From a bacterium (lineage in GTDB: Bacteria; Orphanbacterota; Orphanbacteria; Orphanbacterales; Orphanbacteraceae), in NCBI GenBank assembly GCA_025782575.1, contig JALGYY010000046.1:1-64000 (forward strand): a DNA stretch of 64,000 nt, in the 5' to 3' direction. Numbering within the stretch: position 1 is the stretch's first letter; the number at the start of each line of letters is the position of its first letter. The notes beneath the pieces are model-generated. The model searched no databases. It saw only the letters and a list, made by a program, of their open reading frames with translations, and had not been told where the DNA came from. The position numbers were made by a program, and so were the translations under genes. This document shows positions 29,352 to 49,192 of this stretch, one piece after another.

Positions 29352-29386
29352 GTTAGCGCGAACAGTGCCCAACGGGCAAAAGGAAA

Positions 29387-29412
29387 CCCCCGGCCGGCGA
29401 TTCGGCCAGGGG
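29387..29412 (-). terminator. Rho-independent terminator after secreted-protein gene A
   Basis: On the minus strand an approximately ten-pair GC-rich stem (CCCC-GGCCG paired with CGGCC-GGGG, one mismatch) with a six-base loop is followed by TTTCCTTTT. It separates this gene from the downstream sulfatase gene. Confidence 0.75.
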
Positions 29413-29447
29413 TGAATCCGGTTTTCGATCAAGCCGCTTCTTCAGAT

Positions 29448-32685: not shown

Positions 32686-35061
32686 CTAGCGTATCAGTAC
32701 GACTTTTCTTGTTTCGAGTACTTCATTCCCCCCTCTTAAACGAATGAAGTAGACACCCTGGGGAAGATCCTCTCCCGCATCATTCTTGCCGTACCAGGTG
32801 ATCGGGTCCGTCCGAATCCCCTCCAATGCGTGGAACGGAGCGAAGTGCCGAACACGGCGTCCCGCGATGTTGAACACATCAAGTTCTACGCGAACCTCCT
32901 TGAATGCCGCTCGCGTTGCCAGCACGCCTTGTGGGGCACCATCGGTCGGGGGCGGAAGATTGTCAGGTCTGTCCCCGCCATCGCTCCCCGGCTTTCCGCC
33001 GCCCCCCGAGCGCTCAGCTGGCTCCCCTCGGGGAACACGGTAGGAAATGACGGTCTGATGCCTGAATGGATTGGGTGTAATCGTCGAGAGAAACTCACCC
33101 CGTTTGATCGGAGACGGCGCCTCGAGTTCCGAGGACCAGTCCCATTCGAGTCCGAGCCCGCGGACAACCAGGCGATAGGTGAACCTCTCGCCCGGTCTTG
33201 CCTGGTGGTCGTAGAGTTCATATGCCCGATTGTCGACCAACCGGAACTGATCGACCACCTCGGCGTTCCCTTCCAGATCCTCCCTGTAGAGAGTCGCCTG
33301 AGAGCCGAAGGCTCCGCCGAAAACCTTGAAACTGATACGGATATCGCCGTCGAAATCAGGTTGTACATCGAAACCGTGAATGGCGATCGCTTTTACAAAG
33401 AGATCGAACTGCTCCTCGAAGCGATCGAATGACTCATTTCCGGCATCATTAACCGCCCGGAGAGTGATCCTGTGCTGGCCCCCGGGAAGGGACTCGGGGA
33501 CGAACGTATGTTCCAGGCTCTTGGACAACTCAGGCCACCCTCCTTCGGGATCGGCGAAGAACCAGTTGCCGTCGTCAATCTTGAATATGATGTGCTCGAT
33601 CCGGTTGAACGTAATTGAATGGCGCCTGGTGTTTGTTGCCGAGCCGATAACCCGATTGGGGAGAGGGACCTCTTCCACGCGTACATGGATTTCTGGAAAT
33701 GTAGTGGTGATCGTATCGGGCAGTACCCCTCGCCCTGTGTGCTGGCGGATGAACGGATAGGTGTCGAGCACATCCGGAATGCCGTCATCGTCCTCATCCG
33801 CCCATCCCAGCATGGCGCGGGTGTACTCGCAGAGTGCGTCGGCGGGACTCGCCATGGCGCAACGGGTCCGGCGCTGAGCGCAGACCCAGTCCCTGTTCTG
33901 ACTGTTTCGATTCTGGACGGCCAGGTAACCTGATACTGCTCTGCATGGACTGGAGGTTCCGCCGGGAGGATACTCATCGAGCGCGTAGTAGAGGTGGGCT
34001 GCTTCATGAATCAGGAGGCCGGAGAGAGTCAGGTTTCCGACCCTCCCGTCCGAACCGGCGGGTGCGACTAGGAACGGGCCGCCCAGATGGGCGAATGCCG
34101 CATAATTCGTCCCCGTGAACTGGTCGACGTTCGGCAGGAAGATTGTAACGGCCCACTCCGCTTCCAAACGCGTCCTGAGCGAGTCCATATATTCGTACAC
34201 AGGTCCGAAGGGAGTTTCTTTTGTCTCCCAGTCGTAGCCCATATTCCCCATCAACTCGTTCACCCACTCTGCCTGATCGAGATGGGGTGGTGTGGTTCTG
34301 AAATTCCGTAGCGTTTCGATGTCGTTCTGGAAATCATAGATAAAGATTGTCCGAGGATAAGATCCCATCTGACTGGCGAGAAAACCGAAGGCGGCCCGTA
34401 CCTCCTCGTGAATCCTCTGGCGATCCTGGGTGGCGTGCACGGTTCCCGGTCTGTTGGGAAGGACGATTCCCACTGCGTTTCGTCCCATGAGCCATTCAGA
34501 GGTTTGTAAAATACTCGCCCCCGAAGCACGTCCGTAAACCCGGCTGGAGTCCGCGGTCTGCTTCGCCGAGCCATCCGATGAATGCTCTTCAGAATAAAAC
34601 ACTTTGCAGCCGGCTGAGCTCTCCAGCCAGGACTTGTCCACCGGCGGACTGAAAGAGCTGGATTCCCCTTCGTGATTGAAGGAGCCGATAATGTCGAGTT
34701 CAGACTGGGTCGCGGTCTTGAGACGGGCCGTCGAAACAGGCCGTCGATGAAATTCGGCTACCCGTTTGTCGTTCCGGATCATTCGTTCGAGTTCTTCGGG
34801 AACCTGACCGATGATAATGCCCGAGGGGTAGACGTGCGGGAGCCAGGCGCCTCGATCGGAATACTCATCGATGAAATCGTAGACCGTTTGCATCTGGAGA
34901 GGGTGAAGAATGATAAGGCCGTCGGATATTGTGGATTCGAATGCGGCCGCCGGTAGAGGGGAGATCAAGAGGATCAGAATAGTGGCCAGCAGAAAAGCCG
35001 CGAACCCCCGCGATGGCCGGGAATCGCGCCTGACGACCACGGGAAATAAGCGATTCAGCAT
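32686..35061 (-). CDS. Secreted zinc-metallopeptidase-like protein with C-terminal sorting-type domain
   Basis: 791 residues with a signal peptide (FLLATILILLISPLPAAA). Mid-protein IHEAAHLYYALDEYPPG has the HExxH zinc motif plus a distal Asp/Glu-Tyr as in M64-like metzincins; CEYTRAMLGWADEDDDGIPDVLD has a calcium-loop-like run. Immunoglobulin-like segments follow, and the last ~90 residues are a FlgD/type-9-like domain (VELDVFNIAGRRVRHF ending LETRKVVLIR) interrupted by a Gly/Pro-rich insertion. The ATG at 35061 with GGGAG upstream is preferred over 35118. Extracellular protease activity is inferred from the zinc motif only. Confidence 0.78.
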   Translation of the reverse strand: MLNRLFPVVVRRDSRPSRGFAAFLLATILILLISPLPAAAFESTISDGLIILHPLQMQTVYDFIDEYSDRGAWLPHVYPSGIIIGQVPEELERMIRNDKRVAEFHRRPVSTARLKTATQSELDIIGSFNHEGESSSFSPPVDKSWLESSAGCKVFYSEEHSSDGSAKQTADSSRVYGRASGASILQTSEWLMGRNAVGIVLPNRPGTVHATQDRQRIHEEVRAAFGFLASQMGSYPRTIFIYDFQNDIETLRNFRTTPPHLDQAEWVNELMGNMGYDWETKETPFGPVYEYMDSLRTRLEAEWAVTIFLPNVDQFTGTNYAAFAHLGGPFLVAPAGSDGRVGNLTLSGLLIHEAAHLYYALDEYPPGGTSSPCRAVSGYLAVQNRNSQNRDWVCAQRRTRCAMASPADALCEYTRAMLGWADEDDDGIPDVLDTYPFIRQHTGRGVLPDTITTTFPEIHVRVEEVPLPNRVIGSATNTRRHSITFNRIEHIIFKIDDGNWFFADPEGGWPELSKSLEHTFVPESLPGGQHRITLRAVNDAGNESFDRFEEQFDLFVKAIAIHGFDVQPDFDGDIRISFKVFGGAFGSQATLYREDLEGNAEVVDQFRLVDNRAYELYDHQARPGERFTYRLVVRGLGLEWDWSSELEAPSPIKRGEFLSTITPNPFRHQTVISYRVPRGEPAERSGGGGKPGSDGGDRPDNLPPPTDGAPQGVLATRAAFKEVRVELDVFNIAGRRVRHFAPFHALEGIRTDPITWYGKNDAGEDLPQGVYFIRLRGGNEVLETRKVVLIR

Positions 35062-35171
35062 TTCGTTTTCTCCCGTAAGGCTGTGGGAGCTAGCTACGGG
35101 CCTACCCGTAAACAACATACGAAGATATCGGACCGATCGTCAACCCCGGGGGACCTTGATGGCTGCCATTA

Positions 35172-35211: not shown

Positions 35212-36582
35212 ATGAGCCGAATACTTTTTACAGCTACGATGCTCCTGCTGTTCGTCTCGTGCGGCGCGGTGCCCGAGAGACGTGTCGACTTCGTGTTCCT
35301 GATTACGCTGGACACCACGCGGGCCGACCGGCTCGGATGTTACGGCAATCGAAGCGCTTCCACTCCGTCACTTGACCGTCTGGCAGCACAGGGTCTCCTC
35401 TTTGAGACGTGTATTGCTCCCGTTCCGACCACCCTTTCTTCCCATGTGTCGATTCTCAGCTCTCTCTATCCGAGAAGCCACCACATTCCCCGAAACGGAT
35501 TTCGGGTGCCCGAAGACCTCGAAATGCTTCCGAAGATACTCGGTGCGAAGGGCTTTCGGACCGCCGCGTTCATAGGAGCCTACCCCCTTCACAGCGACTT
35601 CGGTCTACACAGGGGATTCGATGTCTACGATGATGATCTCGATGAGTCACCGGCGGGAGGAGAGGTGGAGCGGAGAGCGGACGCAGTGACGTCCCGGGCA
35701 ATCTCCTGGCTCGCGTCAGTGCAGGATGATCCGTTCTTCTTATGGGTCCACCTTTTTGATCCCCACTGGCCGTATGATCCTCCTGAGCCGTTTGATCGGC
35801 TGGGGCGTCTCCCGCCCGGTCGTTTCGATACAGCGGACCTGGATGATCTGATGGATATCCGTTTTCGCCGGCGTCCTTATGATGACGGGGATCATGCCGC
35901 TTTCCTGGCCGCATATGATGGCGAGCTCGCTTTTCTCGATCGCCGACTCGGTGAACTCCTTGACTCGATTCCACGCGACAAAAGGGAGAGAATGCTGATC
36001 GTCGTGGCGGCTGATCATGGAGAGAGCTTCGGTGAACACAATTACTATTTCGATCATGGTGATTTCGTCTGGGATAACGAAATCCGGGTCCCTCTCATTC
36101 TGTCCGGACCGGGGCTGTTCCCCGATGCGTCCGTCATAACAGAACCGGTCGAGCTGATCGATCTGGCACCCACTATTCTGGAGGCGGCCGGGATCAGGAT
36201 TCCTCGCGCATTCGAGGGGAGGAGCCTCCTATCCGCAGCCGACCGCCCCCTTGAGGCGAAGCCTGCCGTCAGCGAGGCGAGCAAGCCCTGGAATGTGGAA
36301 GTGGAATCAGAGTGGCAGAATCGGTACAAGGCAAAGGCGGTTCGAACCGATGAATGGAAGTACATGCTCATCCCATTCACGGGACGGAAAGAGCTCTATC
36401 ACCTGGCCAGCGATCCGGGAGAAACCCGAAACGTCATCCGTCGCCACCCTGAAGTCGCTGACCGAATGGAGGAGGAGCTGACGGATTGGATCCGCCGACG
36501 AGATCCGGGATTTCAGATCGGCGATCTGACCGGGCAGAAAGAGGTTCGAGAAAAACTGAAAGCCTTACAGTACGTAAAATGA
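35212..36582 (+). CDS. Sulfatase-family lipoprotein
   Basis: 456 residues; leader TATMLLLFVSCG suggests lipidation. Alkaline-phosphatase-superfamily fold with LITLDTTRADRLGCYGN (metal ligands), VAADHGESFGEHNYYFDHG (second metal pair) and a C-terminal YHLASDPGETRNVI typical of sulfatases. As in the TPR-fused relative at 27447, the (C/S)xPxR site is replaced: VPTTLSSHVSILSSLYP. This argues against a formylglycine sulfatase and fits a phospho- or other transferase or hydrolase. The next gene starts inside its stop (ATGA), so the two lipoproteins are coupled. It opens the glycan cluster. Confidence 0.85.
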   Translation: MSRILFTATMLLLFVSCGAVPERRVDFVFLITLDTTRADRLGCYGNRSASTPSLDRLAAQGLLFETCIAPVPTTLSSHVSILSSLYPRSHHIPRNGFRVPEDLEMLPKILGAKGFRTAAFIGAYPLHSDFGLHRGFDVYDDDLDESPAGGEVERRADAVTSRAISWLASVQDDPFFLWVHLFDPHWPYDPPEPFDRLGRLPPGRFDTADLDDLMDIRFRRRPYDDGDHAAFLAAYDGELAFLDRRLGELLDSIPRDKRERMLIVVAADHGESFGEHNYYFDHGDFVWDNEIRVPLILSGPGLFPDASVITEPVELIDLAPTILEAAGIRIPRAFEGRSLLSAADRPLEAKPAVSEASKPWNVEVESEWQNRYKAKAVRTDEWKYMLIPFTGRKELYHLASDPGETRNVIRRHPEVADRMEEELTDWIRRRDPGFQIGDLTGQKEVREKLKALQYVK

Positions 36583-37904
36583 TGCAACTGATACTGATTC
36601 TAATCGGAGCTATGGCGATCCTGTCCGGTTGCGGCGACACCCCGCTCCCGGAGAGAGTCGTTCTGCTCGGTCTCGACGCCGCCGATCCTCTCGTGATCGA
36701 GGTCCTCCGGGAGCGGGGGGAGCTCCCCCATTTCGATCGGCTGATCGGTGAAGGCGTATCGTGCCGTCTCCGAGTGAAAGAACCCATCTTCTCACCCATC
36801 ATCTGGACCAGCATTCTGACAGGATTCAAACCGGAGAATCATGGCATCAACAGTTTCACTCTCGCGTCCGGCCAGGAGGGAGGGGTGCGCATCCCTGTGA
36901 CGTCCAACATGCGGAGGAGGAGGGCCGTGTGGGACATCATTGGTAGTGGAGACCGGACCGTGGGCGTGGTCGGCCACTGGGTCACCTGGCCCGCCGAACC
37001 GGTGAACGGTTTTCTACTCTCCAACTACACCTGGCCCCCGAGCACCGAGTATGAAAAGGAGTGGGCCCCTTCAGCGGACTGGGATACCGTCGGCCTCCGG
37101 AGCTGGCCTGACGGAGTCGAACAGGGAGTGCTCGATGCCGTGGATGAGGAGCGCTTTCTCGGTGAGCGGCATTTCAAGGGAGCCGGTATGCTGGATCCTG
37201 CCCTTACTCACTATCTGCGGAAAGATCTTCGCTATCTGAACGCCGGCCTCGCCCTGTTCGACCGGGAGAATCCCGATTTCTTTACTTTGTATATGGAGGG
37301 AATCGATTTCTTCCAGCACAGACTCTGGTTGATGCATTCGTATTATGAGAATCAACGATTCGGCGCTTCGCTGAATGGGCTTCCCGAACCGGAATCTCCC
37401 CTGCCCGCTCGGTTTCTCGGTCGCATTGGGCCGATGGTCGCCGACTCCTACCGGCTCGCCGATCGATTGATCGGCTTGATTCTCGACCGGCTGGACCTGG
37501 AGAAGGACGTTTTGATCGTCGTTTCCGATCACGGGTTCCGATCCTACCCGGAGGGAACGAAGCTGCATGTGGGGGACGATAAGTACGAAGAGCTCCCCTT
37601 CTGGCACAGCGATACGGGCGTTCTCTATGCCGCGGGGCCTCCGTTCAAGAGAGGGAAGCGGGGCGTTATCATCCGGCCGGAAGACGTAACCCTTATCGTG
37701 CTCGCCGCATTCGGCATCTCCCGCGGAGCGGACATGGACGGCGAGGCACCCGAAGCGATCTTCAGTCGTCCGTTTCTGCGGGCCCATCCGATCGAGTCGA
37801 TCAGCACATATGAGACGGGAGCGAGGGGGGACGAAGCCCCGATCGAATCTCCCTATGATGAGAGCATCAGGGAGATGCTCCGGAGCCTCGGTTACCTTGA
37901 CTAG
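36579..37904 (+). CDS. Alkaline-phosphatase-superfamily phosphodiesterase-like lipoprotein
   Basis: 441 residues with a perfect lipobox (AILSGCG). Type I phosphodiesterase/nucleotide-pyrophosphatase-like: VVLLGLDAADPLVIEVLRERGELPHF, IIWTSILTGFKPENHGI with the Thr-type nucleophile region, EGIDFFQHRLW, and VIVVSDHGFRSYPEG carrying metal ligands. The C-terminus MLRSLGYLD is also common in these families. It overlaps the sulfatase-like gene and precedes the DUF2723 protein by 11 bases. Likely substrate is a surface or lipid-linked phosphodiester; unproven. Confidence 0.82.
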   Translation: MMQLILILIGAMAILSGCGDTPLPERVVLLGLDAADPLVIEVLRERGELPHFDRLIGEGVSCRLRVKEPIFSPIIWTSILTGFKPENHGINSFTLASGQEGGVRIPVTSNMRRRRAVWDIIGSGDRTVGVVGHWVTWPAEPVNGFLLSNYTWPPSTEYEKEWAPSADWDTVGLRSWPDGVEQGVLDAVDEERFLGERHFKGAGMLDPALTHYLRKDLRYLNAGLALFDRENPDFFTLYMEGIDFFQHRLWLMHSYYENQRFGASLNGLPEPESPLPARFLGRIGPMVADSYRLADRLIGLILDRLDLEKDVLIVVSDHGFRSYPEGTKLHVGDDKYEELPFWHSDTGVLYAAGPPFKRGKRGVIIRPEDVTLIVLAAFGISRGADMDGEAPEAIFSRPFLRAHPIESISTYETGARGDEAPIESPYDESIREMLRSLGYLD

Positions 37905-37915
37905 CCGGGTGAATC

Positions 37916-40501
37916 ATGGGGTTTGACCGGCGTTATGCGGCGGGGTCTGCGATCCTTCTTATCGCGCTCGCTCTCTACCTGGGAACACTGTCACGTGGCA
38001 TCCAGCCGGGGGACGGTCCGGAACTGACCGTCTCATCGGCGCATCTGGGCATTCCCCACCCTTCGGGTTACCCCACATACACCATGGTCGGGAGGTTGTT
38101 CAGTCTGATACCGGCCGGGTCACAGGCTGTCCGGGCCAATCTGTTCGCGGCGGTCTGTGGCGCGGGCGCCGTAACGGTTTTCGGAATCTGGCTGCTTCGG
38201 ATTTCGGGGAGCCTGATCGGCGCGCTCTTCGCTGCGGGCGCCCTGGCGACATCACTTACGCTCTGGAGAGAATCGACCTCCGCCGAAGTGTACTCGCTCT
38301 CGGCCCTTTTTCTGACCCTGCTTCTCGCCTCCCTGCCGGAGCGCCGGGGAGACGGTCGGTTTCCGCTGTTCTGCTATCTGTGGGGACTCGCCCTCACGAA
38401 TCATCTCTCTCTGGTTTTTCTGTTTATTCCGTTCGCTGTTTTCGGATTCACCCGTGCCCGTCCGAACAGGAGTCAGTTTTTCGGAGGGGTAATCCTCTTC
38501 CTTCTCGGCCTGACACCCTATCTCTATCTCCCCATTCGAAGCGCCCAGGCTCCGCTCTGGAACTGGGGATTCCCTGCCCAACTCGATCCGTTTCTCGTCC
38601 ATGTTCTGGGCCAGGGCTACTGGGGATACCTGGCCGAAGGGGATTCATGGAGCCGTCTCGTCGAATGGACCGGCGGATTTCGGAGGGAGGCCACGTGGGC
38701 GGGGCTGCTGCTTGTACCGGCCGGCGCGTTCGTCATGCGACGCCAGGCGAGAGATCTCCTTCTGCTTGTTTTTGGCGGCACGCTCTTGAGCCTCGCCTAC
38801 ACGCTTCATTTTCATATAAACGATCCGGAAGCCTATTTTCTCCCCGTGACGATCCTGTTGCTTGTTCCTGTGCCGTTTGCCGTCAGGTATCTGGGGCGGC
38901 CCCGGATCGTGGCCGTAGTTCTTGTTCTGTTTCTCGGAGCGCAGTTCCTGTCGAATCGTGCGGAGTGTGACCGGCGGACGCAGAGAGTCCTTGATGAATA
39001 CATAAACAATCTGCTGATGACTTTCGATGTGGGTGGAACTGTTATCGTGGAAGGTGACAATGAAACATTCGGCCTGCTCTACGCAATGGAAGGGGATGGT
39101 CGCCGGACTGATCTCACTCTCTGGAACTCCGTTCTCGATCTGATGCCCGAGGGGCCGCTCTTCCATGACGTCGTTCTGACTGAGCGTGCGCCCGGTTGGA
39201 AGAGAAAGGCGATTCGTTCCGCGATTGCAGAAGGGCGGCCGGTCTACACGACGGTTGAAAGCGACATGATCCGGGCAGAAGGATTCGAACTTCGGCCGCA
39301 AGGCCTTTCGTTTCAATACGAACGATTCGGTGAACCCCGGACAGGCGATTCAGATTCCCTCTGGTCTCTCTATGGAAGAGAGAGTGTCGGTCGCGTGGAT
39401 CACCGGTCCGGCTACCTCACTCGGATTCTGGCATCGCTCTATCCGATCCAGGAGAGCCGGAATCTACAGGAAACAGGGGAGCTGGAAGAGGCGGCACGTT
39501 TGCTTCGTGAGGCGGAGGAGAGGGGGGAGGGGATCGGGGTCGTCTGGAACAGTGTCGGCCTCGCCCACGAGCGGGCGGGCGACAGGGAAGAGGCGATACG
39601 TCTCTTTCAAAAGGCGGCGGAAGTGGCGCGGGACGGGAAGCCCCGCTTCAACCTCGCCCGGTTATTCTTCGATGACGGGCGGATGGACGAGGCGGAACGG
39701 GAGGTTCGTTGGGTCGTGGAGAAAGACCCGTCCCTCCGCTACGCCGGATCGCTTTTGCTCGGCGCGATACTTGTTGATGCCGGAAGAACCGGCGAGGCGG
39801 CCGGAACCTATCGGGCCGCGTGGCGGGAACGGCCGGGTGAAACCGCTCCTCTGTTAGGACTGGCTGAAGTTTCACTCCGGAACGGCCATGTAGATGAGGC
39901 GCGTGAGCACTTTCGAGCGGCCGGCCGCATCCGGCCGGGTGCCGTCCGTGACGGTGAGTACCGGATTGCCACATACTTTGAATCGGAGGGGCGGCTCGAA
40001 GAAGCAGCAGCTGTTTATCGTTCGCTCGCCGGTGAGTCGATCTACGATCTCGGGGCGTTTCTTTCGCTCGCCATGGTCCGCGCCGAATCGGGCGCAGTGT
40101 CAGAGGCCGATTCACTTTTCGATTACGCACTCGCTATTGATCAGGGAGGTGCGGCGTACAACGCATACGCCTGGTCACTGGCGATGCGTGGAGAGAGGTT
40201 GAACGACGCAATCGAATTGGTCCGCGAGTCCAGGATGCGGGATCCGGACGATCCATACGCTGCCGACACGGAGGGATGGATTCTTCATCTCCTCGCGGAC
40301 GATGCGGCAGCGGTGAAGTCGCTCCGTGAGGCGAAGCGGCTCGGGCTCTCCACCGCCGGTCTTGATTATCGGCTGGGCATCGTACTCATCGGCCTGAACG
40401 GGCTCGGTGAGGGGCGTGCTCTTCTGACGCAGGCGCTTCTGGAAGATCCGGCATCGACTCATGCGTCCGAGGCGTACCGCCTTCTCGATCAGTCCGAATG
40501 A
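37916..40501 (+). CDS. DUF2723 membrane protein with C-terminal TPR arm (GT-C-like)
   Basis: 861 residues. The first ~350 are polytopic and carry the DUF2723 signature (GTLSRGIQPGDGPELTVSSAHLGIPHPSGYPTY cut into its parts GDGPEL and HPSGYPTYTM, TSLTLWRESTSAEVYSL, ALTNHLSLVFLF), related to protein O-mannosyltransferases; acidic residues sit in the first outer loop. A soluble part of about 140 residues follows, then eight or so TPR-like repeats (WNSVGLAHERAGDREEAIRLF, LGLAEVSLRNGHVDEAREHF). A lipid-linked-sugar transferase with a TPR substrate arm is plausible. Transfer activity is inference. Confidence 0.82.
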   Translation: MGFDRRYAAGSAILLIALALYLGTLSRGIQPGDGPELTVSSAHLGIPHPSGYPTYTMVGRLFSLIPAGSQAVRANLFAAVCGAGAVTVFGIWLLRISGSLIGALFAAGALATSLTLWRESTSAEVYSLSALFLTLLLASLPERRGDGRFPLFCYLWGLALTNHLSLVFLFIPFAVFGFTRARPNRSQFFGGVILFLLGLTPYLYLPIRSAQAPLWNWGFPAQLDPFLVHVLGQGYWGYLAEGDSWSRLVEWTGGFRREATWAGLLLVPAGAFVMRRQARDLLLLVFGGTLLSLAYTLHFHINDPEAYFLPVTILLLVPVPFAVRYLGRPRIVAVVLVLFLGAQFLSNRAECDRRTQRVLDEYINNLLMTFDVGGTVIVEGDNETFGLLYAMEGDGRRTDLTLWNSVLDLMPEGPLFHDVVLTERAPGWKRKAIRSAIAEGRPVYTTVESDMIRAEGFELRPQGLSFQYERFGEPRTGDSDSLWSLYGRESVGRVDHRSGYLTRILASLYPIQESRNLQETGELEEAARLLREAEERGEGIGVVWNSVGLAHERAGDREEAIRLFQKAAEVARDGKPRFNLARLFFDDGRMDEAEREVRWVVEKDPSLRYAGSLLLGAILVDAGRTGEAAGTYRAAWRERPGETAPLLGLAEVSLRNGHVDEAREHFRAAGRIRPGAVRDGEYRIATYFESEGRLEEAAAVYRSLAGESIYDLGAFLSLAMVRAESGAVSEADSLFDYALAIDQGGAAYNAYAWSLAMRGERLNDAIELVRESRMRDPDDPYAADTEGWILHLLADDAAAVKSLREAKRLGLSTAGLDYRLGIVLIGLNGLGEGRALLTQALLEDPASTHASEAYRLLDQSE

Positions 40502-40536
40502 GCGCCCGGGCCGAGCCGGATGATCGGGGATGCCGG

Positions 40537-41835
40537 CTAGGAAGACCGCCAGATGACGACTTTGTTCTTTCCTGATTTCTTTGCCAGGTAAAGTGCCTGA
40601 TCCGCTTTTTCGAGAAGGTCCTTCCGAAGCGCTTCCGGCTCTCCCTTGGTTCCGGTCTGGTCCGGGTAGACGGCAATCCCGATCGATGTGGTCAGGCTGA
40701 TCTTCTTCTTCCCGTCCAGCGGCACGGCCAGCTCGCTGACGAGAACCCGGATTCGTTCGCAGATCTGCTCCGCCTGATCCTTCGCGGCGCCCGGGAGCAG
40801 CAGGGCGAATTCTTCCCCTCCATAACGGGTGACCAGATCGATCTTTCTCACATGATCGTTCAGCAACCGCCCCACCGATGCGAGTACCCGATCCCCCACC
40901 GGATGACCATGGGTATTGTTGATTTCGCTGAAGTTGTCGAGATCGACCATCACGAGTGAAAGAGGGATCTCGTCACGGTTCGCACGGTCGAGTTCTCTCA
41001 GAATCTGCTCTTCAAAAAAGCGCCGGGTGAACACGCCGGTGAGCACATCGATATAAATCAGTTCTTCAAGAGCTCTCGCGTTACTCACCCGGCCGGCGGC
41101 GACGAGGGCCAGGAGGGAAAGAAGGCCGCGGTCCTGCTCGGAGAGGGAATCGGCGGAAGTGAGGAGAAGGTGGACTGCGCCGAGCGTCTTACCTCCTGCT
41201 CGCAGCGGGAGCGAGGCGATTGAACGGGCGCTTCCTCGCAACTGACGGGCGAGCGCAGGCTCGTCCCTGATGTCCGGGACGTAAATCGGATCCCCCCCCT
41301 GTTCGAAGTGTTCGCGGAACTGCTCGGCAATCCGGGGAGGTGCGGTCCCGTCGAGCGAACGCAGACCGCCATCCTCATAGAGATAGAATCGAATCTCCTG
41401 TGTGGAGAACTGAGCGCTCATATAGTCACCGACTTCGGCGAGAGCGCTCTGGAGGTCATCGTCGGATGTGCGGGTTACGATTCCGGTGATGAGGGACTCG
41501 AAAGCCTGGTTGTCGCCGGGGATCCCTGCGGGAAAAGACGGGCGGAACGGAAACTCGTACCTGTGTGGCGTACTGTCCGGCGGCTCGATCGTGATCGTCT
41601 GGAGCGATTCTCTGCTGAAGTAAACAGCCCCCGCCGATTCCTGATCTTCTGCTCCCCGCGTATAGAGTCCGTCGCCGCAAAGAGCCTCGAGCGCCAGGAT
41701 CGCTGTTCTCCAGAGTCCGCGCGGATCATCCTTCTGCAGCGCCTCTCGGATCAGTTGCTGGAGTGACTCATCCAGCCGGTCGACCGGCAGAACAGTTGCC
41801 AGGAGCTCACGATAGTCGGATTGTTCGGTGCTCAT
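40537..41835 (-). CDS. Diguanylate cyclase with GAF domain
   Basis: 432 residues: N-terminal helical part, a GAF-like sensor (about 130-250, including LAEVGDYMSAQFSTQEIRFY and GKTLGAVHLLLTSADS), then a GGDEF domain with intact active site RYGGEEFALLLPG and the guanine-binding DLDNFSEINNTHGHPVGD. It should make cyclic-di-GMP. No RxxD inhibitory site is obvious five residues before GGEEF. It is transcribed alone, convergent to the DUF2723 gene, and may balance the HD-GYP protein at 10941. Confidence 0.9.
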   Translation of the reverse strand: MSTEQSDYRELLATVLPVDRLDESLQQLIREALQKDDPRGLWRTAILALEALCGDGLYTRGAEDQESAGAVYFSRESLQTITIEPPDSTPHRYEFPFRPSFPAGIPGDNQAFESLITGIVTRTSDDDLQSALAEVGDYMSAQFSTQEIRFYLYEDGGLRSLDGTAPPRIAEQFREHFEQGGDPIYVPDIRDEPALARQLRGSARSIASLPLRAGGKTLGAVHLLLTSADSLSEQDRGLLSLLALVAAGRVSNARALEELIYIDVLTGVFTRRFFEEQILRELDRANRDEIPLSLVMVDLDNFSEINNTHGHPVGDRVLASVGRLLNDHVRKIDLVTRYGGEEFALLLPGAAKDQAEQICERIRVLVSELAVPLDGKKKISLTTSIGIAVYPDQTGTKGEPEALRKDLLEKADQALYLAKKSGKNKVVIWRSS

Positions 41836-41866
41836 CTGCTTTCCCTAGGTGTGATATACCGAATAT

Positions 41867-41896
41867 ATTTTACCATGCAGAACAGGCATCTCGCAA
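41867..41896 (-). promoter_or_regulatory. Candidate promoter for the diguanylate cyclase gene
   Basis: Minus strand: TTGCGA (41891-41896), 18-base spacer, TAAAAT (41867-41872) with TGG before it. The ATG at 41835 would follow a leader of about 25 bases with an AGGGA ribosome site. Confidence 0.5.
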
Positions 41897-41995
41897 GCAG
41901 GGTCGATGGCGGCTACCGACCGGGCGTGGTAATCTTGCCTCCATATTCTGCTCAGTTTTCTGCTGTGGCCTTCGGAGAGAGGCCCTGCAAGACCA

Positions 41996-43531
41996 GTGAC
42001 GGAGGTGACAGCGATTTCGCTCCATCGTAATGAAGTCCTCTTCCTGGCGCTTCTAGCGGCCGCATTTCTTCTTCATGCGGTCTATTTCAACTACACTGTC
42101 GATGACGCCTACATCAGTTTCCGGTATGCCGCGAACTGGGTCGCAGGTGATGGTCTCGTGTACAACCCCGGTGAGCGTGTGGAGGGCTACACTAACTTCC
42201 TCTGGACGGCCCTCTCCGCCGCTGCCCTTCGCCTCGGGGCCGATCAGGAGGACTTTGCCCGCTGGGCCGGCCTTCTCGCCGGAATGGGGTGTCTCATATT
42301 TTCCTACGGGGAACTCCGTCGCCGGATCTCCCCTCATCCGCTCCTCTTTCTGCTGCCGATCTCCCTCGCAGCTAACGGCGTCTTCGTGGTCTGGTCCGGC
42401 GCCGGGCTGGAAACCAGTCTCTTCGCGTTCCTGATGCTTGCCGGCACAATGGCCGCCGCCGGCCGAGAAGATAGCAGGTCGATTTACGTCTCCGCCGTTC
42501 TCTTTGCTGTTGCCACATTGACCCGGCCCGAAGGGGCGTTCATTTTTGTGATTGTCGCTCTCGACCGGTTCTTCTTCACACCAGGGTCGAGAGGTTCCGT
42601 GATCAAGGCGGTTCTGCTGTTCGGCGCTCTCACTCTGCCGTTCGAACTGCTGCGGCATGCTTACTACGGAGAGTGGCTCCCCAATACCTGGTATGCCAAA
42701 TCGGGTGGAGGGCCGGCCGCTTTCGCCAGGGGACTGCGGTACCTTGGCAACTATTTCGGGCCTTTCGGAGGCTGGACCATGCTCGCCCCGCTCCCCCTTA
42801 TTTTCTTTATTCGATTGAGAGAATGGGAACGTACCGTCCTGATCGTGCTGTTTGCCTATTTCGCCTACATTGTCCTGATCGGAGGAGATGGCCTGCCCTA
42901 CTTTCGATTTGTCGCCCCCGTCCTTCCCCTTCTTGCCATGCTCGCCGTATCCGGGCTCTGCCGGTTGTATCACATTCAGGATGGAATCAGCCTGCTCCGG
43001 GTGGCGCTTTTCGCGATCCTTCTCGCCCTCCCCATATACAGTTCATTTCGGGGAGAGACTTACCAGTTTCTCGTCGACGACCGGCTGCGCATCGAACTTC
43101 ACTGGAAGGTGATCGGAAAGTGGCTTGCCGAGACTGGCGCGCCGGGAGAAACGATCGCGGTCACCACGGCCGGCGCGATTCCCTACTTCTCGGGCCTTCC
43201 CACTGTGGATATGCTCGGAATAACCGATAAACATATAGCACGTCGGAAGATGCCCGAAATGGGCTCGGGGATTGCCGGCCACGAAAAGCATGATATGGCA
43301 TATGTTCTTTCAAAAGAGCCGACGTACCTGCTGCACTATACATTTCTATTACCCGAACCGGTATTCACGACAGGACAGTTTCGTTCGCCGTGGAATCCAG
43401 GACTCGAGGAACTGCTCCAAAGTGAAGAATTCAATCGAGATTACAGGGGCGAGAGTGCGCAGATCGGAAAGATGTATGTTGTCTACTTCAAACGGGTGCC
43501 GGCGGATCGCCCCGGCCGGGAAGAGAGATAG
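41996..43531 (+). CDS. GT-C membrane glycosyltransferase, AftB-like arabinofuranosyltransferase family
   Basis: 511 residues, about ten membrane segments. The first outer loop has the family signature VDDAYISFRYAANWVAG and NPGERVEGYTNFLW with the DD/E acidic residues of polyprenyl-phosphate-sugar-dependent GT-C enzymes; LTRPEGAFI and YYGEWLPNTWYAK are further family motifs. Related to mycobacterial AftB, but sugar and acceptor cannot be predicted. The start is GTG at 41996; GTG at 42005 is possible. It heads a short run with the GT9 and GT2 genes. Confidence 0.85.
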   Translation: MTEVTAISLHRNEVLFLALLAAAFLLHAVYFNYTVDDAYISFRYAANWVAGDGLVYNPGERVEGYTNFLWTALSAAALRLGADQEDFARWAGLLAGMGCLIFSYGELRRRISPHPLLFLLPISLAANGVFVVWSGAGLETSLFAFLMLAGTMAAAGREDSRSIYVSAVLFAVATLTRPEGAFIFVIVALDRFFFTPGSRGSVIKAVLLFGALTLPFELLRHAYYGEWLPNTWYAKSGGGPAAFARGLRYLGNYFGPFGGWTMLAPLPLIFFIRLREWERTVLIVLFAYFAYIVLIGGDGLPYFRFVAPVLPLLAMLAVSGLCRLYHIQDGISLLRVALFAILLALPIYSSFRGETYQFLVDDRLRIELHWKVIGKWLAETGAPGETIAVTTAGAIPYFSGLPTVDMLGITDKHIARRKMPEMGSGIAGHEKHDMAYVLSKEPTYLLHYTFLLPEPVFTTGQFRSPWNPGLEELLQSEEFNRDYRGESAQIGKMYVVYFKRVPADRPGREER

Positions 43532-43533
43532 GA

Positions 43534-44658
43534 GTGTGCAGTTTGATCGTTAACTCTGACTGTCGTCACTTCCGAGGGGAGAAGCCATGCGTATTTCGCC
43601 GACTCTGTGACGGTTGTGATGAGTACGATCCGATGGGCGTGAAGATCCTAATCATCAAGCTTGCAGCGATGGGTGACGTACTCCGGACGACGCCGATCCT
43701 CACGGCTCTCCGTGCCCGATTCGAGCCATGCCATATCACGTGGGTGGTCCGGCCTGAATCCACCGGGCTTCTGGAAGGACTTCCGGAGATCGACCGGCTC
43801 CTGCCGCTGAACATGGATACGGTAATTCGCCTTGGGGTCGAGGAGTTTGACCACGCCTACTGCTTCGACAAGGAGCCCGCGGCGATCGGACTGGCTGCCC
43901 GGGTCCGTTCACCACGAAAATACGGATTTCTGATGGACGAAAAAGGAAGCCTCGTTCCCGCGGACAAGAACGCCGAGTATGCCTATCAACTCGGGTTTGA
44001 TGATGATCTTAAATACTTCAGGAATAAGAAAACTTATCAGCAGATCCTCTTCGAAATGGGGGGGATGGAGTTTCGAGGCGAGGGCTATCGGTTCGAGATC
44101 GATGGGGCCGCGCGGGAATGGGCAACTTCGACCTATGACACGCTGGGTGTCAGTCCGGGGGAACGGTTGGTCGGAATCAATGTCGGGTCGGGAGATCAGT
44201 TTGCGTATAAAGGTTGGCGGGTCGATGGATTTGCCGAACTGGCCGGCCGAATCCACGGGGAACTGGGCATGCGAATCGTTCTTCTCGGCGGGGAACGGGA
44301 ACGGGAACGGGTCCGGGCGATCATCGAGCAGGCCGACTGTCGCGGTCTGATCGATCCGGGCGCGACGCCTTCGCTCCACAGATTCGCCGCGCTGGTCAGC
44401 CGTTGCCGCCTCGTAGTAACGGGAGACACATTGGCCATGCACATGGCCCTCGCCACCGGTCTTCCGGTAGTCGTTATCTTCGGTTCCACCTGCGCACAGG
44501 AAATCGAAGTCTACGGCCGAGGTCGTAAAATCGTACCAACAGTCGATTGCCACCCCTGTTACAAAAAAACCTGCGACCTGGAAAAGACCTGTGTCGACTC
44601 GATTTCGACAGAAACTGTATTTCAGGGGATCAAGGATCTCCTGGAGGAACTCGATTGA
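43534..44658 (+). CDS. Glycosyltransferase family 9 (heptosyltransferase-like) with Cys-rich ends
   Basis: 374 residues with the GT9 fold of LPS heptosyltransferases: KILIIKLAAMGDVLRTTPIL at the start of the first Rossmann half, VGINVGSGDQFAYKGWRVDGFAEL, and VVTGDTLAMHMALATGLPVV in the second. In front lies an extension with spaced cysteines (DCRHFRGEKPC, LCDGCDEY) and the C-terminus adds DCHPCYKKTCDLEKTC; together they could bind metal or an iron-sulfur cluster. TTG at 43543, eight bases after GGAG, is as likely a start as GTG 43534. It is followed by the GT2 gene with a TTGA overlap. Donor sugar unknown. Confidence 0.87.
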   Translation: MCSLIVNSDCRHFRGEKPCVFRRLCDGCDEYDPMGVKILIIKLAAMGDVLRTTPILTALRARFEPCHITWVVRPESTGLLEGLPEIDRLLPLNMDTVIRLGVEEFDHAYCFDKEPAAIGLAARVRSPRKYGFLMDEKGSLVPADKNAEYAYQLGFDDDLKYFRNKKTYQQILFEMGGMEFRGEGYRFEIDGAAREWATSTYDTLGVSPGERLVGINVGSGDQFAYKGWRVDGFAELAGRIHGELGMRIVLLGGERERERVRAIIEQADCRGLIDPGATPSLHRFAALVSRCRLVVTGDTLAMHMALATGLPVVVIFGSTCAQEIEVYGRGRKIVPTVDCHPCYKKTCDLEKTCVDSISTETVFQGIKDLLEELD

Positions 44659-45374
44659 AGATCATCGTAATGATCCCCACGTACGACGAGCGGGAAAACA
44701 TCGTAGACCTGCTGGAGGCGATCGCGGAACTGAAGATCGACGGTCTGGAGGCGCTGGTGGTGGATGACGATTCGCCGGACGGCACATCGTCCGTCGTATC
44801 CGAGTTTGCTTCCGCTCATCCCTGGGTGACACTCCTCACGAGAAAGACCGATAAAGGGAGAGGGCACGCAGGACGGGCGGGATACTTGAAGGCGCTGGAG
44901 GACGGTGCTGATCTCATCCTGGAGATGGATGCCGATCTTTCCCACCACCCCCGATATATTCCCGACCTGATTGCCGCTGCTGACGAGAATGACGTCGTCC
45001 TCGGATCCCGTTTCGTCGGAGGTGGAGAGGATGCGGATCGCGCCCCCTGGCGTAAAATCATCACTGTGTTGGCGAACTTCTATATTCGTGTCATCCTTCG
45101 CATACCGGTGCATGATTGCAATTCGGGATTCCGTTGCTTTCGGAGGAGCGCTCTCGAGCGGATCGAACCGGCTACCCTTCGTTCGGCAGGCCCCGCAATC
45201 GTGCAGGAGGTTCTCTTTCGAGCGGAGAGAAGAGACCTTCGGGTAAAGGAAGTTCCCGTGATCTTCACCGATCGCGTGCGAGGGAGTTCCAAGCTCGGTT
45301 TCCGGCAGCTCTATCAAGGATATGTGGCCGTGCTTCGGCTGAGGATGGGAGAACTGTTAGGGAGGGGCCGGTGA
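44655..45374 (+). CDS. GT2 polyprenol-phosphate glycosyltransferase (Dpm1-like)
   Basis: 239 residues, soluble or membrane-associated GT2 of the dolichol/polyprenol-phosphate mannose synthase type: IVMIPTYDERENI, VVDDDSPDGTSSVV, MDADLSHHPRYIPDLI (DxD), VLGSRFVGGG, DCNSGFRCFRRSAL and FTDRVRGSSKLGF. It has no C-terminal membrane domain. It would load a sugar onto a polyprenyl phosphate, the donor for GT-C enzymes. The start is TTG at 44655 overlapping the GT9 stop (TTGA). Confidence 0.9.
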   Translation: MKIIVMIPTYDERENIVDLLEAIAELKIDGLEALVVDDDSPDGTSSVVSEFASAHPWVTLLTRKTDKGRGHAGRAGYLKALEDGADLILEMDADLSHHPRYIPDLIAAADENDVVLGSRFVGGGEDADRAPWRKIITVLANFYIRVILRIPVHDCNSGFRCFRRSALERIEPATLRSAGPAIVQEVLFRAERRDLRVKEVPVIFTDRVRGSSKLGFRQLYQGYVAVLRLRMGELLGRGR

Positions 45375-45615
45375 TACGAATCCGCCGCATCATCTACGTG
45401 AGTTTCGGCGAGCAACAATGGTAGAGTTCTTCCGTCGGCATGGTTTTAAACCGTTGCATGTGGTCGCCCGGGTTCCTAAACCGGACCGTCTTGATTCGCC
45501 GCGCGGCGCGAGCGATCGGTGCCTGAACGCAATGTTCGATCTGCTCGACCGGGGCGCGTTGTACGCCGGTCTACCGGGAGGCAATATCGGCGTCTACGGG
45601 AGAAAGATCGGTTGA
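45371..45615 (+). other. Small coupled ORF pair of unknown nature, possible frameshifted gene
   Basis: GTG at 45371 overlaps the GT2 stop (GTGA) and opens a 17-codon frame (IRIRRIIYVSFGEQQW), ending at 45424. A second frame starts at ATG 45418 and codes for 65 residues (MVEFFRRHGFKPLHVVARV, later GALYAGLPGGNIGVYGRKIG), ending in a TTGA overlap with the next gene. The two segments read like the start of one Rossmann-type glycosyltransferase with a single-base shift near 45418, but a small real gene at 45418-45615 is equally possible. No family recognised. Confidence 0.45.
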
Positions 45616-48149
45616 ACCCGTTTCGGGGTTTTTTGTTTGCGGCACTCGTTATCTTCGCGGGAGTCGTCTCTCTTCGACACGTATCCAGTGCCGATCTCGG
45701 TATCCATATCCGCACGGGGGAACGAATTGTCACCGAGCGGGCCATCCCTTCAACGGATCATTTCAGCTTTACAGCAGACGGAAACGATTGGCACATCAAT
45801 CAATGGCTGGCTCAGATTCTTCTTTACGGCGTAGATGAAACTTGGGGGGCTCGGGGCCTCGTCGCTCTCAGGATGCTCCTGGTGGTGGGGACATTCGGTC
45901 TTCTCGTCTGGGGCTGCACGCTCGGGGAAAGTCGATCGGAATTACTGGGAGGGGCGCTGCTGGTTGCCGCGCTCCTCGCGTCCGCGCCGCGGATCCTCAT
46001 GCGACCGTTCCTGTTTTCAGTAATCCTCCTTGCACTCGTGGCGGTTCTTTTCGAGCGCTATCGTCGCGGGAATTCGCGCAGGCTGACAATCCTCATCCCT
46101 CTCTTTGCGTTGTGGGGAACGCTCCATCCGGGATTCCTGTACGGTGCGGGGTTTTTAGGCTGTGCCGTCCTTGGTGAATGGCTGCGTGCTCGCGTTCCTG
46201 TTCTACGCGGCGCGATTCCGCCGCTCGACGCTCCCCGCTTCCGTCATCTTGTTATTGTCTCCGTACTTTCGATTGCCGCGCCGATCCTGATTGCAGCCGC
46301 CACGAACCCGCACGGTATCGAATCTGTCCTTCTCCCCCTGGGTCTTATGAAGAGTGATTTCTTTCTCCAGATTATCGACGAATACCAGAGGGCTGATCCG
46401 GTACGGGACCGCTGGTTCTTTGTGCTGCTAATCGTCTCAGGAATCTCACTGATTATCCCCCACCGAAAACGGCTCTCCATGGACGGAACGGAGCTGCTGC
46501 TTCTCTGTCTGTTCGGCATCTTTGCGGTGAAGACAGTTCGGGTCATCTTTCTCTTCAGTCTGTTGGCAGCCCCTCTGGCTGCTCGAAACCTGTCGCCCCT
46601 TGCGAACCGGCTTCTCCCCCCGAATAGAATCCCCGCAAGATGGGGGACGCTCGTCGCCGCTCTTTCTATCCTGTTCTTTGCGTGGTGGTGGAGTGGTCAC
46701 GACCCCCTTCATGGCCGAGGCATGGACGAACGAAACTATCCGATCGCAGCGTTTCGATTTATCGAGCAGAACGAGCTTCCCGGCGAGATCTTCCATCCCG
46801 ATCGATGGGGGGGTGCGTTCACCTGGTACTTCTGGCCGGAACGAAAGAATTTCATCGATGGCCGCCTGGAAGTCTTCGGCGAACGGTTCTGGAAAGATAC
46901 TTATTTTCGAGTGCTCGGGTGTGGGCCGGCGTGGGAAGAGACTCTCGATCTGTATGGGATCAATACGATTATTTTGCGAATCGGTTCTGCTTCGGGCCGG
47001 GATCGGATCGGCGCGCGACTTCTCCGGCATCCCGATTGGGCACTCGTCTACTTCGATGATCAACTAATGATCCATTGTCGTCGGTCCGCCCTCGCGGAGA
47101 GCGGAAGTCCGGTCATTCCGTTGGAATCGCTTGATCCGGAGATGGTCAGCTTACCGGAGTCGATCCAAGAGGAAAGGGACGCTTCGGAGGCGCTCGCTCT
47201 CGCGCTGGGCGCATTCCCTTCGACCAGGGCGTTCGATCTCAGTTGGGCAATTCTGAGCGAAAGAGGGGAGTGGGCGGAGATCGCAGGCAGCAGCGGACTC
47301 CATCGGATTTCACGCCCGGCCGACAGGATCAGATTCTTCAGGATACGTGGCGAGGCCCGCTTCCGAATCGGTGACCGTGCCGGAGCGAGAGCGGATTGGA
47401 TCGAAGCGCGCGGCAGCTCGTTCGCAATGGAAGATCTTGAACTTCTGCGTGCCCTCGAAGATCAGTCCCTTGATCGATTGGCGGACAGATTCGGGGACAG
47501 GCCGGATGAGCTCTTCCGGATGGCCTCTCTTCTGCTCGATGGACAGGAACCGTCGGTCGCATCCACGATTTTTCGGCGGGCCCAGCTCGCAGGTGGGGGA
47601 GAGGGATACTACAAAAACGCTCTTGCCTGGTCCCTTCTCGAATCCGGTCAGAATACTGAAGAGGCGCTTCGGCTCGCCAGAGAGACGGTTCATGCGAATC
47701 CATCGGACGGCTACGGTCGGGGCACTCTGGCGCGGGCTCTCCGTGCATCGGGTGATCCGGATGGTGCCGAACGTGAAATGAATGAAGCGATCCGGTTGTT
47801 GGTGGGAGTCGATTTCCGTGCCGCGGCAACGGAGCTCTCCCGGTTGGCGCTCTTCCTGGAGGAGCGGGGTGATGATCGTCTGGGAGACGCGATGGAAGCC
47901 GCGATCCGGGCTCTTCAGATCGACTCAAAAACGGAATATCGCCCCTGGCTTGTGAGGCTCCTGATGGAAAGAGGGGGTGAAGATCGGCTCGATGGGATCA
48001 TGGAAGAGATGGCGTACAACCTGGGGCTCGGCATTCATATCGAATTCGCCGAAGAGATGGGGCATGGTGACATCGTGGAGGAACTGAAAGAGCGGTTCCT
48101 GTTCGATTACCAGGGGCTGCCCGAAGGATCAGAGGGGAGGAAGTACTGA
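45612..48149 (+). CDS. Large GT-C-like membrane protein with C-terminal TPR-like repeats
   Basis: 845 residues. About ten membrane segments fill the first ~400 residues; the first outer loop reads SSADLGIHIRTGERI, IPSTDHFSFTADGNDWHINQWL, a pattern of unclassified polytopic proteins resembling GT-C glycosyltransferases. A soluble domain (PDRWGGAFTWYFWPERKNFIDGR) follows, then TPR-like helices (LLESGQNTEEALRLARETV, GRGTLARALRASGDPDGAEREM). The start is TTG at 45612 (TTGA overlap). Position right after GT9 and GT2 suggests use of a lipid-linked sugar, with no direct proof. Confidence 0.75.
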   Translation: MNPFRGFLFAALVIFAGVVSLRHVSSADLGIHIRTGERIVTERAIPSTDHFSFTADGNDWHINQWLAQILLYGVDETWGARGLVALRMLLVVGTFGLLVWGCTLGESRSELLGGALLVAALLASAPRILMRPFLFSVILLALVAVLFERYRRGNSRRLTILIPLFALWGTLHPGFLYGAGFLGCAVLGEWLRARVPVLRGAIPPLDAPRFRHLVIVSVLSIAAPILIAAATNPHGIESVLLPLGLMKSDFFLQIIDEYQRADPVRDRWFFVLLIVSGISLIIPHRKRLSMDGTELLLLCLFGIFAVKTVRVIFLFSLLAAPLAARNLSPLANRLLPPNRIPARWGTLVAALSILFFAWWWSGHDPLHGRGMDERNYPIAAFRFIEQNELPGEIFHPDRWGGAFTWYFWPERKNFIDGRLEVFGERFWKDTYFRVLGCGPAWEETLDLYGINTIILRIGSASGRDRIGARLLRHPDWALVYFDDQLMIHCRRSALAESGSPVIPLESLDPEMVSLPESIQEERDASEALALALGAFPSTRAFDLSWAILSERGEWAEIAGSSGLHRISRPADRIRFFRIRGEARFRIGDRAGARADWIEARGSSFAMEDLELLRALEDQSLDRLADRFGDRPDELFRMASLLLDGQEPSVASTIFRRAQLAGGGEGYYKNALAWSLLESGQNTEEALRLARETVHANPSDGYGRGTLARALRASGDPDGAEREMNEAIRLLVGVDFRAAATELSRLALFLEERGDDRLGDAMEAAIRALQIDSKTEYRPWLVRLLMERGGEDRLDGIMEEMAYNLGLGIHIEFAEEMGHGDIVEELKERFLFDYQGLPEGSEGRKY

Positions 48150-49192
48150 TGAACTACAGGTTGCTGGGGGCGAGCGGACTCCGGGTGTCCGAGCTCTGTC
48201 TTGGTACGATGACTTTCGGAGAAGAATGGGGATGGGGCGCCAACAAAGAGGAGAGTCGAAAGATATTTGATCTCTATACGGACCGAGGGGGAAATTTCCT
48301 GGATACCGCCAATCGTTACACGGACGGGACAAGTGAGAAGTACGTAGGGGAGTTCATCAAGGGCTCACGCGAACAATTCGTGGTGGCCACCAAGTACACC
48401 CTCTTCACCGATCCCGACGATCCGAATGCCGCAGGAAACCATCGGAAGAATATGATGCAGGCGGTAAACGCGAGTCTCCGTCGTCTTGAAACTGAATACA
48501 TCGATCTTTACTGGGTACATGCGTGGGACTTTCTCACCCCGGCGGAGGAAGTGATGCGCGGGTTGGACGACCTCGTCCGATCAGGCAAGGTACTTTATAT
48601 AGGTGTGTCCGACACGCCGGCGTGGGTCGTGTCTCGAGCCAACATGCTGGCGGAGCTTAGGGGGTGGTCCCGGTTCGTCGGTCTACAGATCGAATACAGC
48701 CTCGCCGAGCGGACTGTGGAACGGGAGCTGATTCCCATGGCTCGTACGCTCGACCTGGCTGTGGCCGCCTGGGCGCCGCTGGCGGCAGGCGTACTGAGTG
48801 CCAAATATCTGGACGGCCGGAAACCCGAGGAGGCGAGCCGGCTGGCGGCGGAGAGCGATCGACTCTCCGAGCGCAATCTGGCGATCGCCCGGGTGGTCAA
48901 GAGTGTGGCTGACGAGATCGACGTCACTCCTTCACAGGTGGCGGTGAACTGGCTCCGTCAGCAGCCGGGTGTGGTGATCCCGATTATCGGCGCCAGAAGG
49001 GCGTGGCAGGTGGAGGAGAACCTGGGCGCCCTCGAATTCGAGATTCCGGAAGCTCAGATGGTCCGCCTGGAAGAAGGGAGCCGCATTCCTCTCGGATTCC
49101 CTCATGATTTCCTGATGAAGGAGAACATCCGTGAGATGGTCCGAGGGCCGAAGCACCCCAAGATCCGCGCCCACAGGGACTATACAGCCTAG
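48149..49192 (+). CDS. Aldo/keto reductase
   Basis: 347-residue NADPH-dependent (beta/alpha)8 oxidoreductase of the AKR superfamily, YghZ/potassium-channel-beta-like branch. The tetrad is complete: D52 and Y57 (FLDTANRYTDG), K82 (VATKYTLF), H124 (DLYWVHAWD); cofactor residues lie in VVIPIIGARRAWQVEENL. ATG shares a base with the previous stop. It could act on a sugar intermediate of the cluster or be a general carbonyl reductase. Confidence 0.92.
   Translation: MNYRLLGASGLRVSELCLGTMTFGEEWGWGANKEESRKIFDLYTDRGGNFLDTANRYTDGTSEKYVGEFIKGSREQFVVATKYTLFTDPDDPNAAGNHRKNMMQAVNASLRRLETEYIDLYWVHAWDFLTPAEEVMRGLDDLVRSGKVLYIGVSDTPAWVVSRANMLAELRGWSRFVGLQIEYSLAERTVERELIPMARTLDLAVAAWAPLAAGVLSAKYLDGRKPEEASRLAAESDRLSERNLAIARVVKSVADEIDVTPSQVAVNWLRQQPGVVIPIIGARRAWQVEENLGALEFEIPEAQMVRLEEGSRIPLGFPHDFLMKENIREMVRGPKHPKIRAHRDYTA

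What the first reader, a model, noticed from the sequence alone, without database searches (positions are those of the whole stretch)
35212..49192. TPR-armed glycan or glycoprotein assembly cluster
Within 14 kb lie two metal-dependent sulfatase/phosphodiesterase-like lipoproteins, a DUF2723 (PMT-like) protein with TPR arm, an AftB-like GT-C, a GT9, a Dpm1-like GT2, and a second large GT-C-like protein with TPR arm. The Dpm1-like enzyme would make polyprenyl-phosphate sugar, the donor type GT-C enzymes use. Two membrane transferases ending in TPR domains suggest protein acceptors or docking to a partner. There are no O-antigen polymerase, flippase or ligase genes, so it does not look like a standard LPS or capsule locus.
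Basis: inference. Interest (0 to 1): 0.65.

Follow-up and report, generated by a model that had tools for sequence, protein, structure and literature searches.

The report
Eisenbacteria outer-side glycan assembly genes
A stretch of an uncultured bacterium's genome carries a conserved set of membrane sugar-transferring enzymes, one of them related to the human protein-mannosylating enzyme TMEM260, next to unusual phosphate-chemistry enzymes; it probably decorates surface proteins or envelope glycans with sugars, but the acceptor is not known.

Summary
The genes are there. The host groups with Candidatus Eisenbacteria. GT9 and the Dpm1-like GT2 lie here in only two genera. Gene order over the whole ~45 kb is conserved, so synteny alone is weak evidence. 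Better evidence: DUF2723 paralogues elsewhere also sit beside AP genes (3/6, 3/6, 4/7, 4/6 loci against 6-8% expected), and a second conserved locus links AP, GT2, a YfhO GT-C and DUF2723. The AP enzymes are not canonical formylglycine sulfatases: 40 of 42 checked have Thr at the nucleophile position, none the C/S-x-P-x-R motif. The AftB-like protein keeps AftB's catalytic aspartate. Both TPR arms are modelled well; the membrane domains are not. Best reading: an extracytoplasmic, lipid-phosphate-sugar-dependent glycosylation module. A protein acceptor is plausible (TMEM260/TMTC precedent; at least 148 T9SS C-terminal domains in the genome) but unproven; a glycosylation-motif test gave no signal. 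New variant of a known kind.

The parts
35212..36582 (+). AP1: alkaline-phosphatase-superfamily lipoprotein (sulfatase fold, Thr at the nucleophile position)
   Evidence: PF00884 E 8.5e-39; lipobox FVSC in the translation; Thr aligned to the sulfatase Cys/Ser and no C/S-x-P-x-R; 7 of 7 genomes
36579..37904 (+). AP2: type I phosphodiesterase-like lipoprotein, start overlaps the AP1 stop
   Evidence: PF01663 E 1.6e-22; overlapping start; 7 of 7 genomes
37916..40501 (+). DUF2723/TMEM260-like GT-C with C-terminal TPR arm (~residues 500-860)
   Evidence: PF11028 80.6 bits against a cut-off of 24.2, plus TPR families; invariant GDGPEL...HPSGYP; TPR arm mostly pLDDT 70-93; 7 of 7 genomes
40537..41835 (-).
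   Evidence: PF00990 E 5.7e-45; same place and strand in G001-G004 and G006
41996..43531 (+). AftB-like GT-C
   Evidence: Solved AftB 9dlf, profile E 4.7e-13; invariant DD at 36-37 aligned with AftB D61-D62; D62 catalytic per PMC12041299
43534..44658 (+). GT9 (heptosyltransferase-like), accessory
   Evidence: PF01075 E 1.9e-17; adjacent only in G000 and G001
44655..45374 (+). Dpm1-like GT2 without membrane domain (TTG start overlapping the GT9 stop), accessory
   Evidence: PF00535; 5mlz E 3.9e-29; start; at this locus only in G000 and G001
45519..48149 (+). Large polytopic GT-C-like protein with TPR arm (~600-820)
   Evidence: At least 7 hydrophobic segments; TPR arm mostly pLDDT 73-91, Z 15 to OGT TPR; no Pfam or NCBIfam hit for the membrane part; homologue beside two YfhO genes in G018
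48149..49192 (+). Aldo/keto reductase, overlapping start, probably accessory
   Evidence: PF00248 E 1.1e-76; not found next to the locus in relatives
32686..35118 (-). Divergent exported protein with T9SS-type C-terminal tail; possible acceptor (speculative)
   Evidence: C-terminal matches to NF033707 and TIGR04183, weak; 7 of 7 genomes
27447..29432 (-). Third AP lipoprotein nearby, with its own TPR arm (Thr at the nucleophile position)
   Evidence: PF00884 E 3.7e-42 plus TPR

Best explanation
Two neighbouring operons encode part of an extracytoplasmic glycosylation pathway. A sugar is loaded on polyprenyl phosphate in the cytoplasm by a Dpm1-like GT2 (encoded here in two genera, elsewhere in the genome in the others) and flipped across the membrane by an unidentified flippase. 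The DUF2723/TMEM260-like, AftB-like and probably the third GT-C-like enzyme then use it on the periplasmic side. Their TPR arms would hold the acceptor or a partner, most likely exported proteins such as T9SS cargo with Ig-like C-terminal domains. The Thr-type AP lipoproteins act on the same product or carrier by phosphodiester chemistry (hydrolysis, or transfer of a phospho-group) and not as formylglycine sulfatases. Shown: enzyme families, gene layout, catalytic Asp of the AftB-like protein, Thr in the AP proteins, TPR arms, conservation, repeated AP-DUF2723 linkage. Inferred: direction of the pathway, donor, acceptor, chemistry of the AP enzymes.
For: Families. Core kept in six relatives with tight or overlapping genes. 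AP within 4 kb of 3/6, 3/6, 4/7 and 4/6 DUF2723 loci in four genomes, expected 6-8%, P 0.0002-0.01 per genome. One AftB-like paralogue lies 0.3-0.5 kb from an AP gene in each of the four genomes tested (G000-G003). A second conserved locus with AP, GT2, a YfhO protein weakly matching PgfM2, and DUF2723, its GT2 83-87% identical between genera. TMEM260/TMTC TPR precedent (PMC11292533). SprA-like translocon and at least 148 T9SS C-terminal domain matches in the genome.
Against: No flippase in the locus. GT2 not core. Synteny of the whole region is high, so conservation is weak evidence of one pathway. AP2-DUF2723 adjacency was not seen among the listed matches outside the family (lists cut), nor AP genes beside the more distant GT-C-TPR homologues in 13 fetched regions. 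Glycosylation motif not specifically enriched in exported proteins. Membrane domains modelled with low confidence.
Confidence: 0.5

Rival explanations
1. The genes belong to two or more unrelated pathways and are neighbours only because gene order is conserved over the whole region in this family: AP1-AP2-DUF2723 is one unit, AftB-like and the third GT-C-like gene another, GT9-GT2 an insertion.
For: mreB to uvrB is collinear in relatives; the GGDEF gene separates the two operons; GT9-GT2 present in 2 of 7; G001 carries the large GT-C-like gene on another contig.
Against: AP-DUF2723 linkage recurs at independent loci; DUF2723, AftB-like and Dpm1-like enzymes use, or are related to enzymes that use, the same type of donor.
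Confidence: 0.27
2. The module modifies an envelope glycolipid or polysaccharide (LPS core or capsule side branches) instead of proteins, in the manner of Gtr three-component systems or mycobacterial arabinan assembly.
For: GT9 is heptosyltransferase-like; AftB acts on a polysaccharide (PMC12041299); three-component systems combine a polyprenyl-phosphate-sugar synthase, a flippase and a GT-C (PMC11127046); a Wzi-like capsule protein lies at 23639-25633.
Against: No polymerase, ligase or flippase in the locus; TPR arms rather than carbohydrate-binding domains; the TMEM260 family member of known function acts on proteins (PMC11292533).
Confidence: 0.2
3. The AP proteins are sulfatases or phosphodiesterases for scavenging external glycans and the cluster is catabolic.
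For: About 45 PF00884 genes in the genome.
Against: None of 42 proteins checked has the C/S-x-P-x-R sulfatase motif; no glycoside hydrolase or transporter among the cluster's genes.
Confidence: 0.03

Closest known systems
TMEM260 / TMTC protein O-mannosyltransferases (CAZy GT117 / GT105)
   Same: TMEM260-like GT-C domain followed by TPR arm (on the non-cytoplasmic side in the known enzymes); polyprenyl-phosphate sugar donor expected
   Different: Bacterial; acceptor and sugar unknown; sits in an operon with two AP lipoproteins; no activity data
Mycobacterial arabinofuranosyltransferase AftB
   Same: Sequence relationship over ~250 residues including the catalytic DD
   Different: Shorter (511 against 669 aa), different periplasmic part, no arabinan genes seen nearby; sugar unknown
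Gtr-type three-component periplasmic glycosylation systems
   Same: GT2 lipid-phosphate-sugar synthase plus GT-C
   Different: No flippase in the locus; several GT-Cs; GT2 not always present
Streptococcal Pgf protein glycosylation (PgfS, PgfM1, PgfM2)
   Same: GT2 followed by large YfhO/PMT-like membrane protein, as at the second locus
   Different: The window genes themselves are DUF2723 and AftB-like, not YfhO; AP enzymes are not part of Pgf
General O-glycosylation of Bacteroidota
   Same: T9SS-bearing organism; core-initiating machinery unidentified in Bacteroidota (PMC12871550), where a TMEM260 relative is a reasonable candidate
   Different: No D-S/T-x motif signal specific to exported proteins here; no LFG-like locus in the window

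Membership tests
TMEM260-like (PF11028) | Match above the curated cut-off | tested here: met
   80.6 bits against 24.2
TMEM260-like (PF11028) | Acidic motif in the first loop | tested here: met
   GD33GPE36L invariant in the two orthologues aligned; loop position inferred from hydropathy
TMEM260 (GT117) protein O-mannosyltransferase | C-terminal TPR arm | tested here: met
   TPR families and AF2 model
TMEM260 (GT117) protein O-mannosyltransferase | Transfers mannose from lipid phosphate to Ser/Thr of Ig-like domains | not testable with these tools
   Needs biochemistry
AftB | Sequence relationship and catalytic Asp of the DD motif | tested here: met
   E 4.7e-13 to 9dlf; DD invariant in 6 of 6
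AftB | NCBIfam AftB equivalog cut-off (NF041481) | tested here: not met
   46.7 bits against 1050: AftB-like, not AftB
Formylglycine (S1) sulfatase | C/S-x-P-x-R nucleophile motif | tested here: not met
   AP1 has T-L-S-S-H; 0 of 42 proteins of this genome have the motif
Polyprenyl-phosphate sugar synthase (Dpm1-like GT2) | Sequence relationship to a solved Dpm synthase | tested here: met
   5mlz E 3.9e-29
GT-C superfamily, 45519-48149 | GT-C fold | tested here: inconclusive
   Membrane part modelled with low confidence, mostly pLDDT under 50; the structural rows cover only the TPR arm
Gtr three-component system | Flippase in the gene set | tested here: not met
   None among the genes of the locus

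The most novel reading that the evidence does not exclude
A bacterial TMEM260-type protein O-glycosylation system in which TPR-armed GT-C enzymes glycosylate Ig-like C-terminal domains of T9SS cargo, with dedicated Thr-type AP lipoproteins that add or remove phospho-groups on the glycan, formally resembling the GPI pathway's mix of lipid-phosphate-sugar synthase, GT-C transferases and AP-superfamily phosphotransferases.
Probability: 0.12. Interest if true: 0.8.

Novelty: new variant of a known kind. Interest (0 to 1): 0.42.

Why it matters
The machinery that starts Bacteroidota-type O-glycosylation has not been identified (PMC12871550), and bacterial TMEM260 relatives appear little studied: no paper in the held library contains 'DUF2723', and of two that contain 'GT117' only one concerns this enzyme. 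A conserved locus pairing a TMEM260 relative with AP-superfamily lipoproteins in a T9SS-bearing phylum gives specific genes to test. It also shows that a large set of 'sulfatase' annotations in this lineage should not be read as sulfatases.

Tried and rejected
Sulfatase reading of AP1: rejected by motif. GT2 as the core of the cluster: rejected by relatives. AP2-DUF2723 adjacency as a widespread unit: not seen among listed matches in 290 genomes apart from the same family (lists truncated). Distant GT-C-TPR homologues with AP neighbours: none in 13 fetched regions, though one homologue sits with two YfhO genes. Bacteroidota D[ST][AILMVT] motif: modest excess in exported (1.3x), AP (1.5x) and cytosolic proteins (1.4x) alike, so no specific signal (rough ORFs, small sets). 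AF2 models from 2-3 sequences: only TPR arms usable; the structural comparison returned TPR superhelices. Solved-structure search with AP2: no match. Genome-contig scan with the single sequence found nothing; with the alignment, two Candidatus Eisenbacteria records. Promoter scan: no more sites than in shuffles.

Full report
WHAT IS THERE. The interval holds nine genes. Operon 1: AP1 (35212-36582), AP2 (36579-37904, start overlapping the AP1 stop) and a DUF2723/TMEM260-like GT-C with TPR arm (37916-40501, 11 bp later). Operon 2: AftB-like GT-C (41996-43531), GT9 (43534-44658), GT2 (start probably TTG 44655, overlapping the GT9 stop), a large polytopic protein with TPR arm (45519-48149) and an aldo/keto reductase (overlapping start, 48149-49192). 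valS follows. 'Operon' is inferred from spacing; no transcript data exist.

HOST. The two named records with relatives of the large GT-C-like protein are Candidatus Eisenbacteria MAGs; the window's genome groups with six others in one family. The genome encodes a SprA-like T9SS translocon and at least 148 matches to the T9SS C-terminal domain.

CONSERVATION. By tblastn of window proteins on fetched regions, AP1, AP2 and DUF2723-TPR are together in all seven genomes (in G004 and G006 the DUF2723 gene spans a contig break). The antisense GGDEF gene and AftB-like gene follow in six (the G005 contig ends before them). The large GT-C-like gene follows in five; in G001 it lies on another contig. GT9 is in this place in G000 and G001 only. 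So is GT2: in G001 it appears to span the break between contigs C59 and C25, with valS next. In the other four informative genomes the AftB-like gene abuts the large GT-C-like gene. However, mreB-PBP2-rodA-lgt upstream and valS-uvrB downstream are collinear too, so staying together says little by itself.

LINKAGE THAT IS NOT EXPLAINED BY SYNTENY. In four genomes, DUF2723 genes have a PF00884 gene within 4 kb at 3/6, 3/6, 4/7 and 4/6 loci, where 6-8% of the genome lies that near (binomial P 0.005, 0.01, 0.0005, 0.0002). Orthologous loci across genomes are not independent, so the P values must not be multiplied. For AftB-like paralogues the per-genome counts are not significant (P 0.05-0.3), though one is about 0.3-0.5 kb from an AP gene in each genome. 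A second locus, seen in four genera, has GT2, a YfhO membrane protein with a weak match to streptococcal PgfM2, and, depending on the genome, AP and DUF2723 neighbours; its GT2 is 83-87% identical between three genera.

AP ENZYMES. AP1 aligns with choline-sulfatase and other S1 sulfatases, but the formylglycine Cys/Ser position is Thr and the Pro and Arg of the motif are Ser and His. Of 42 PF00884 proteins of this genome checked (two of them in the window), 40 have Thr, one Ser, one Glu; none has C/S-x-P-x-R. TLPSH-like motifs resemble the Thr site of nucleotide pyrophosphatase/phosphodiesterases (from general knowledge). Hydrolase or transferase cannot be decided from sequence.

TRANSFERASES. 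The AftB-like family has an invariant DD (D36-D37) aligned with AftB D61-D62; D62 is catalytically essential in AftB (PMC12041299). The GT2 resembles a solved dolichol-phosphate-mannose synthase but lacks a membrane domain. DUF2723 keeps GDGPEL and HPSGYP. Both TPR arms are modelled with good confidence, the membrane parts are not. The TPR arm of the large protein is closest to O-GlcNAc transferase TPRs (Z 15), which for repeat proteins says only that it is a TPR superhelix.

HOW IT MAY WORK. Lipid-phosphate-linked sugar, made in the cytoplasm and flipped, is used by two or three GT-C enzymes on the periplasmic side. TMEM260 and TMTC TPR domains are thought to recruit Ig-like domains (PMC11292533); T9SS C-terminal domains are Ig-like (PMC11285876 abstract) and abundant here, so they are candidate acceptors. 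This step is inference. The AP lipoproteins would act on a phosphodiester of the carrier or product. A frequency test for the Bacteroidota O-glycosylation motif gave no specific signal.

VERDICT.

Noticed in passing
G000 genome-wide (45 matches); window 27447-29432 and 35212-36582: About 45 PF00884 genes in this genome and 29-44 in three relatives; of 42 checked here almost all have Thr at the nucleophile position: a large expansion of sulfatase-fold proteins that are not canonical sulfatases.
   Followed up: partly
window 40537-41835 (-): GAF-GGDEF diguanylate cyclase antisense between the two operons, kept in the same place in all relatives whose contigs reach it; 161 bp between its start and the AftB-like start.
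   Followed up: partly
L224 8822-12096, L223 3406-6968, L222 3477-6757: Second conserved glycosylation locus: GT2 (83-87% identical between genera, unusually conserved) followed by a YfhO/PgfM2-like membrane protein, with AP and DUF2723 genes close by.
   Followed up: partly
G000:C21:304609-310431 (SprA-like) and 148 C-terminal domain matches: A T9SS with a very large cargo set in Candidatus Eisenbacteria.
   Followed up: no
window 29448-30176 and 30399-31127 (-): Tandem pair of very similar 242-aa exported proteins without any Pfam or NCBIfam match; relatives showed one copy at this place.
   Followed up: no
window 59325-62414 (+): Fused MFS-like membrane domain, spermidine-synthase domain and TPR arm in one 1029-aa protein.
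   Followed up: no
window 23639-25633 (+): Wzi-like capsule assembly protein 10 kb upstream, conserved in G001.
   Followed up: no
L270 4710-12069: In G018 a homologue of the large TPR-armed protein lies directly beside two YfhO genes, indirect support for a glycosyltransferase role.
   Followed up: partly
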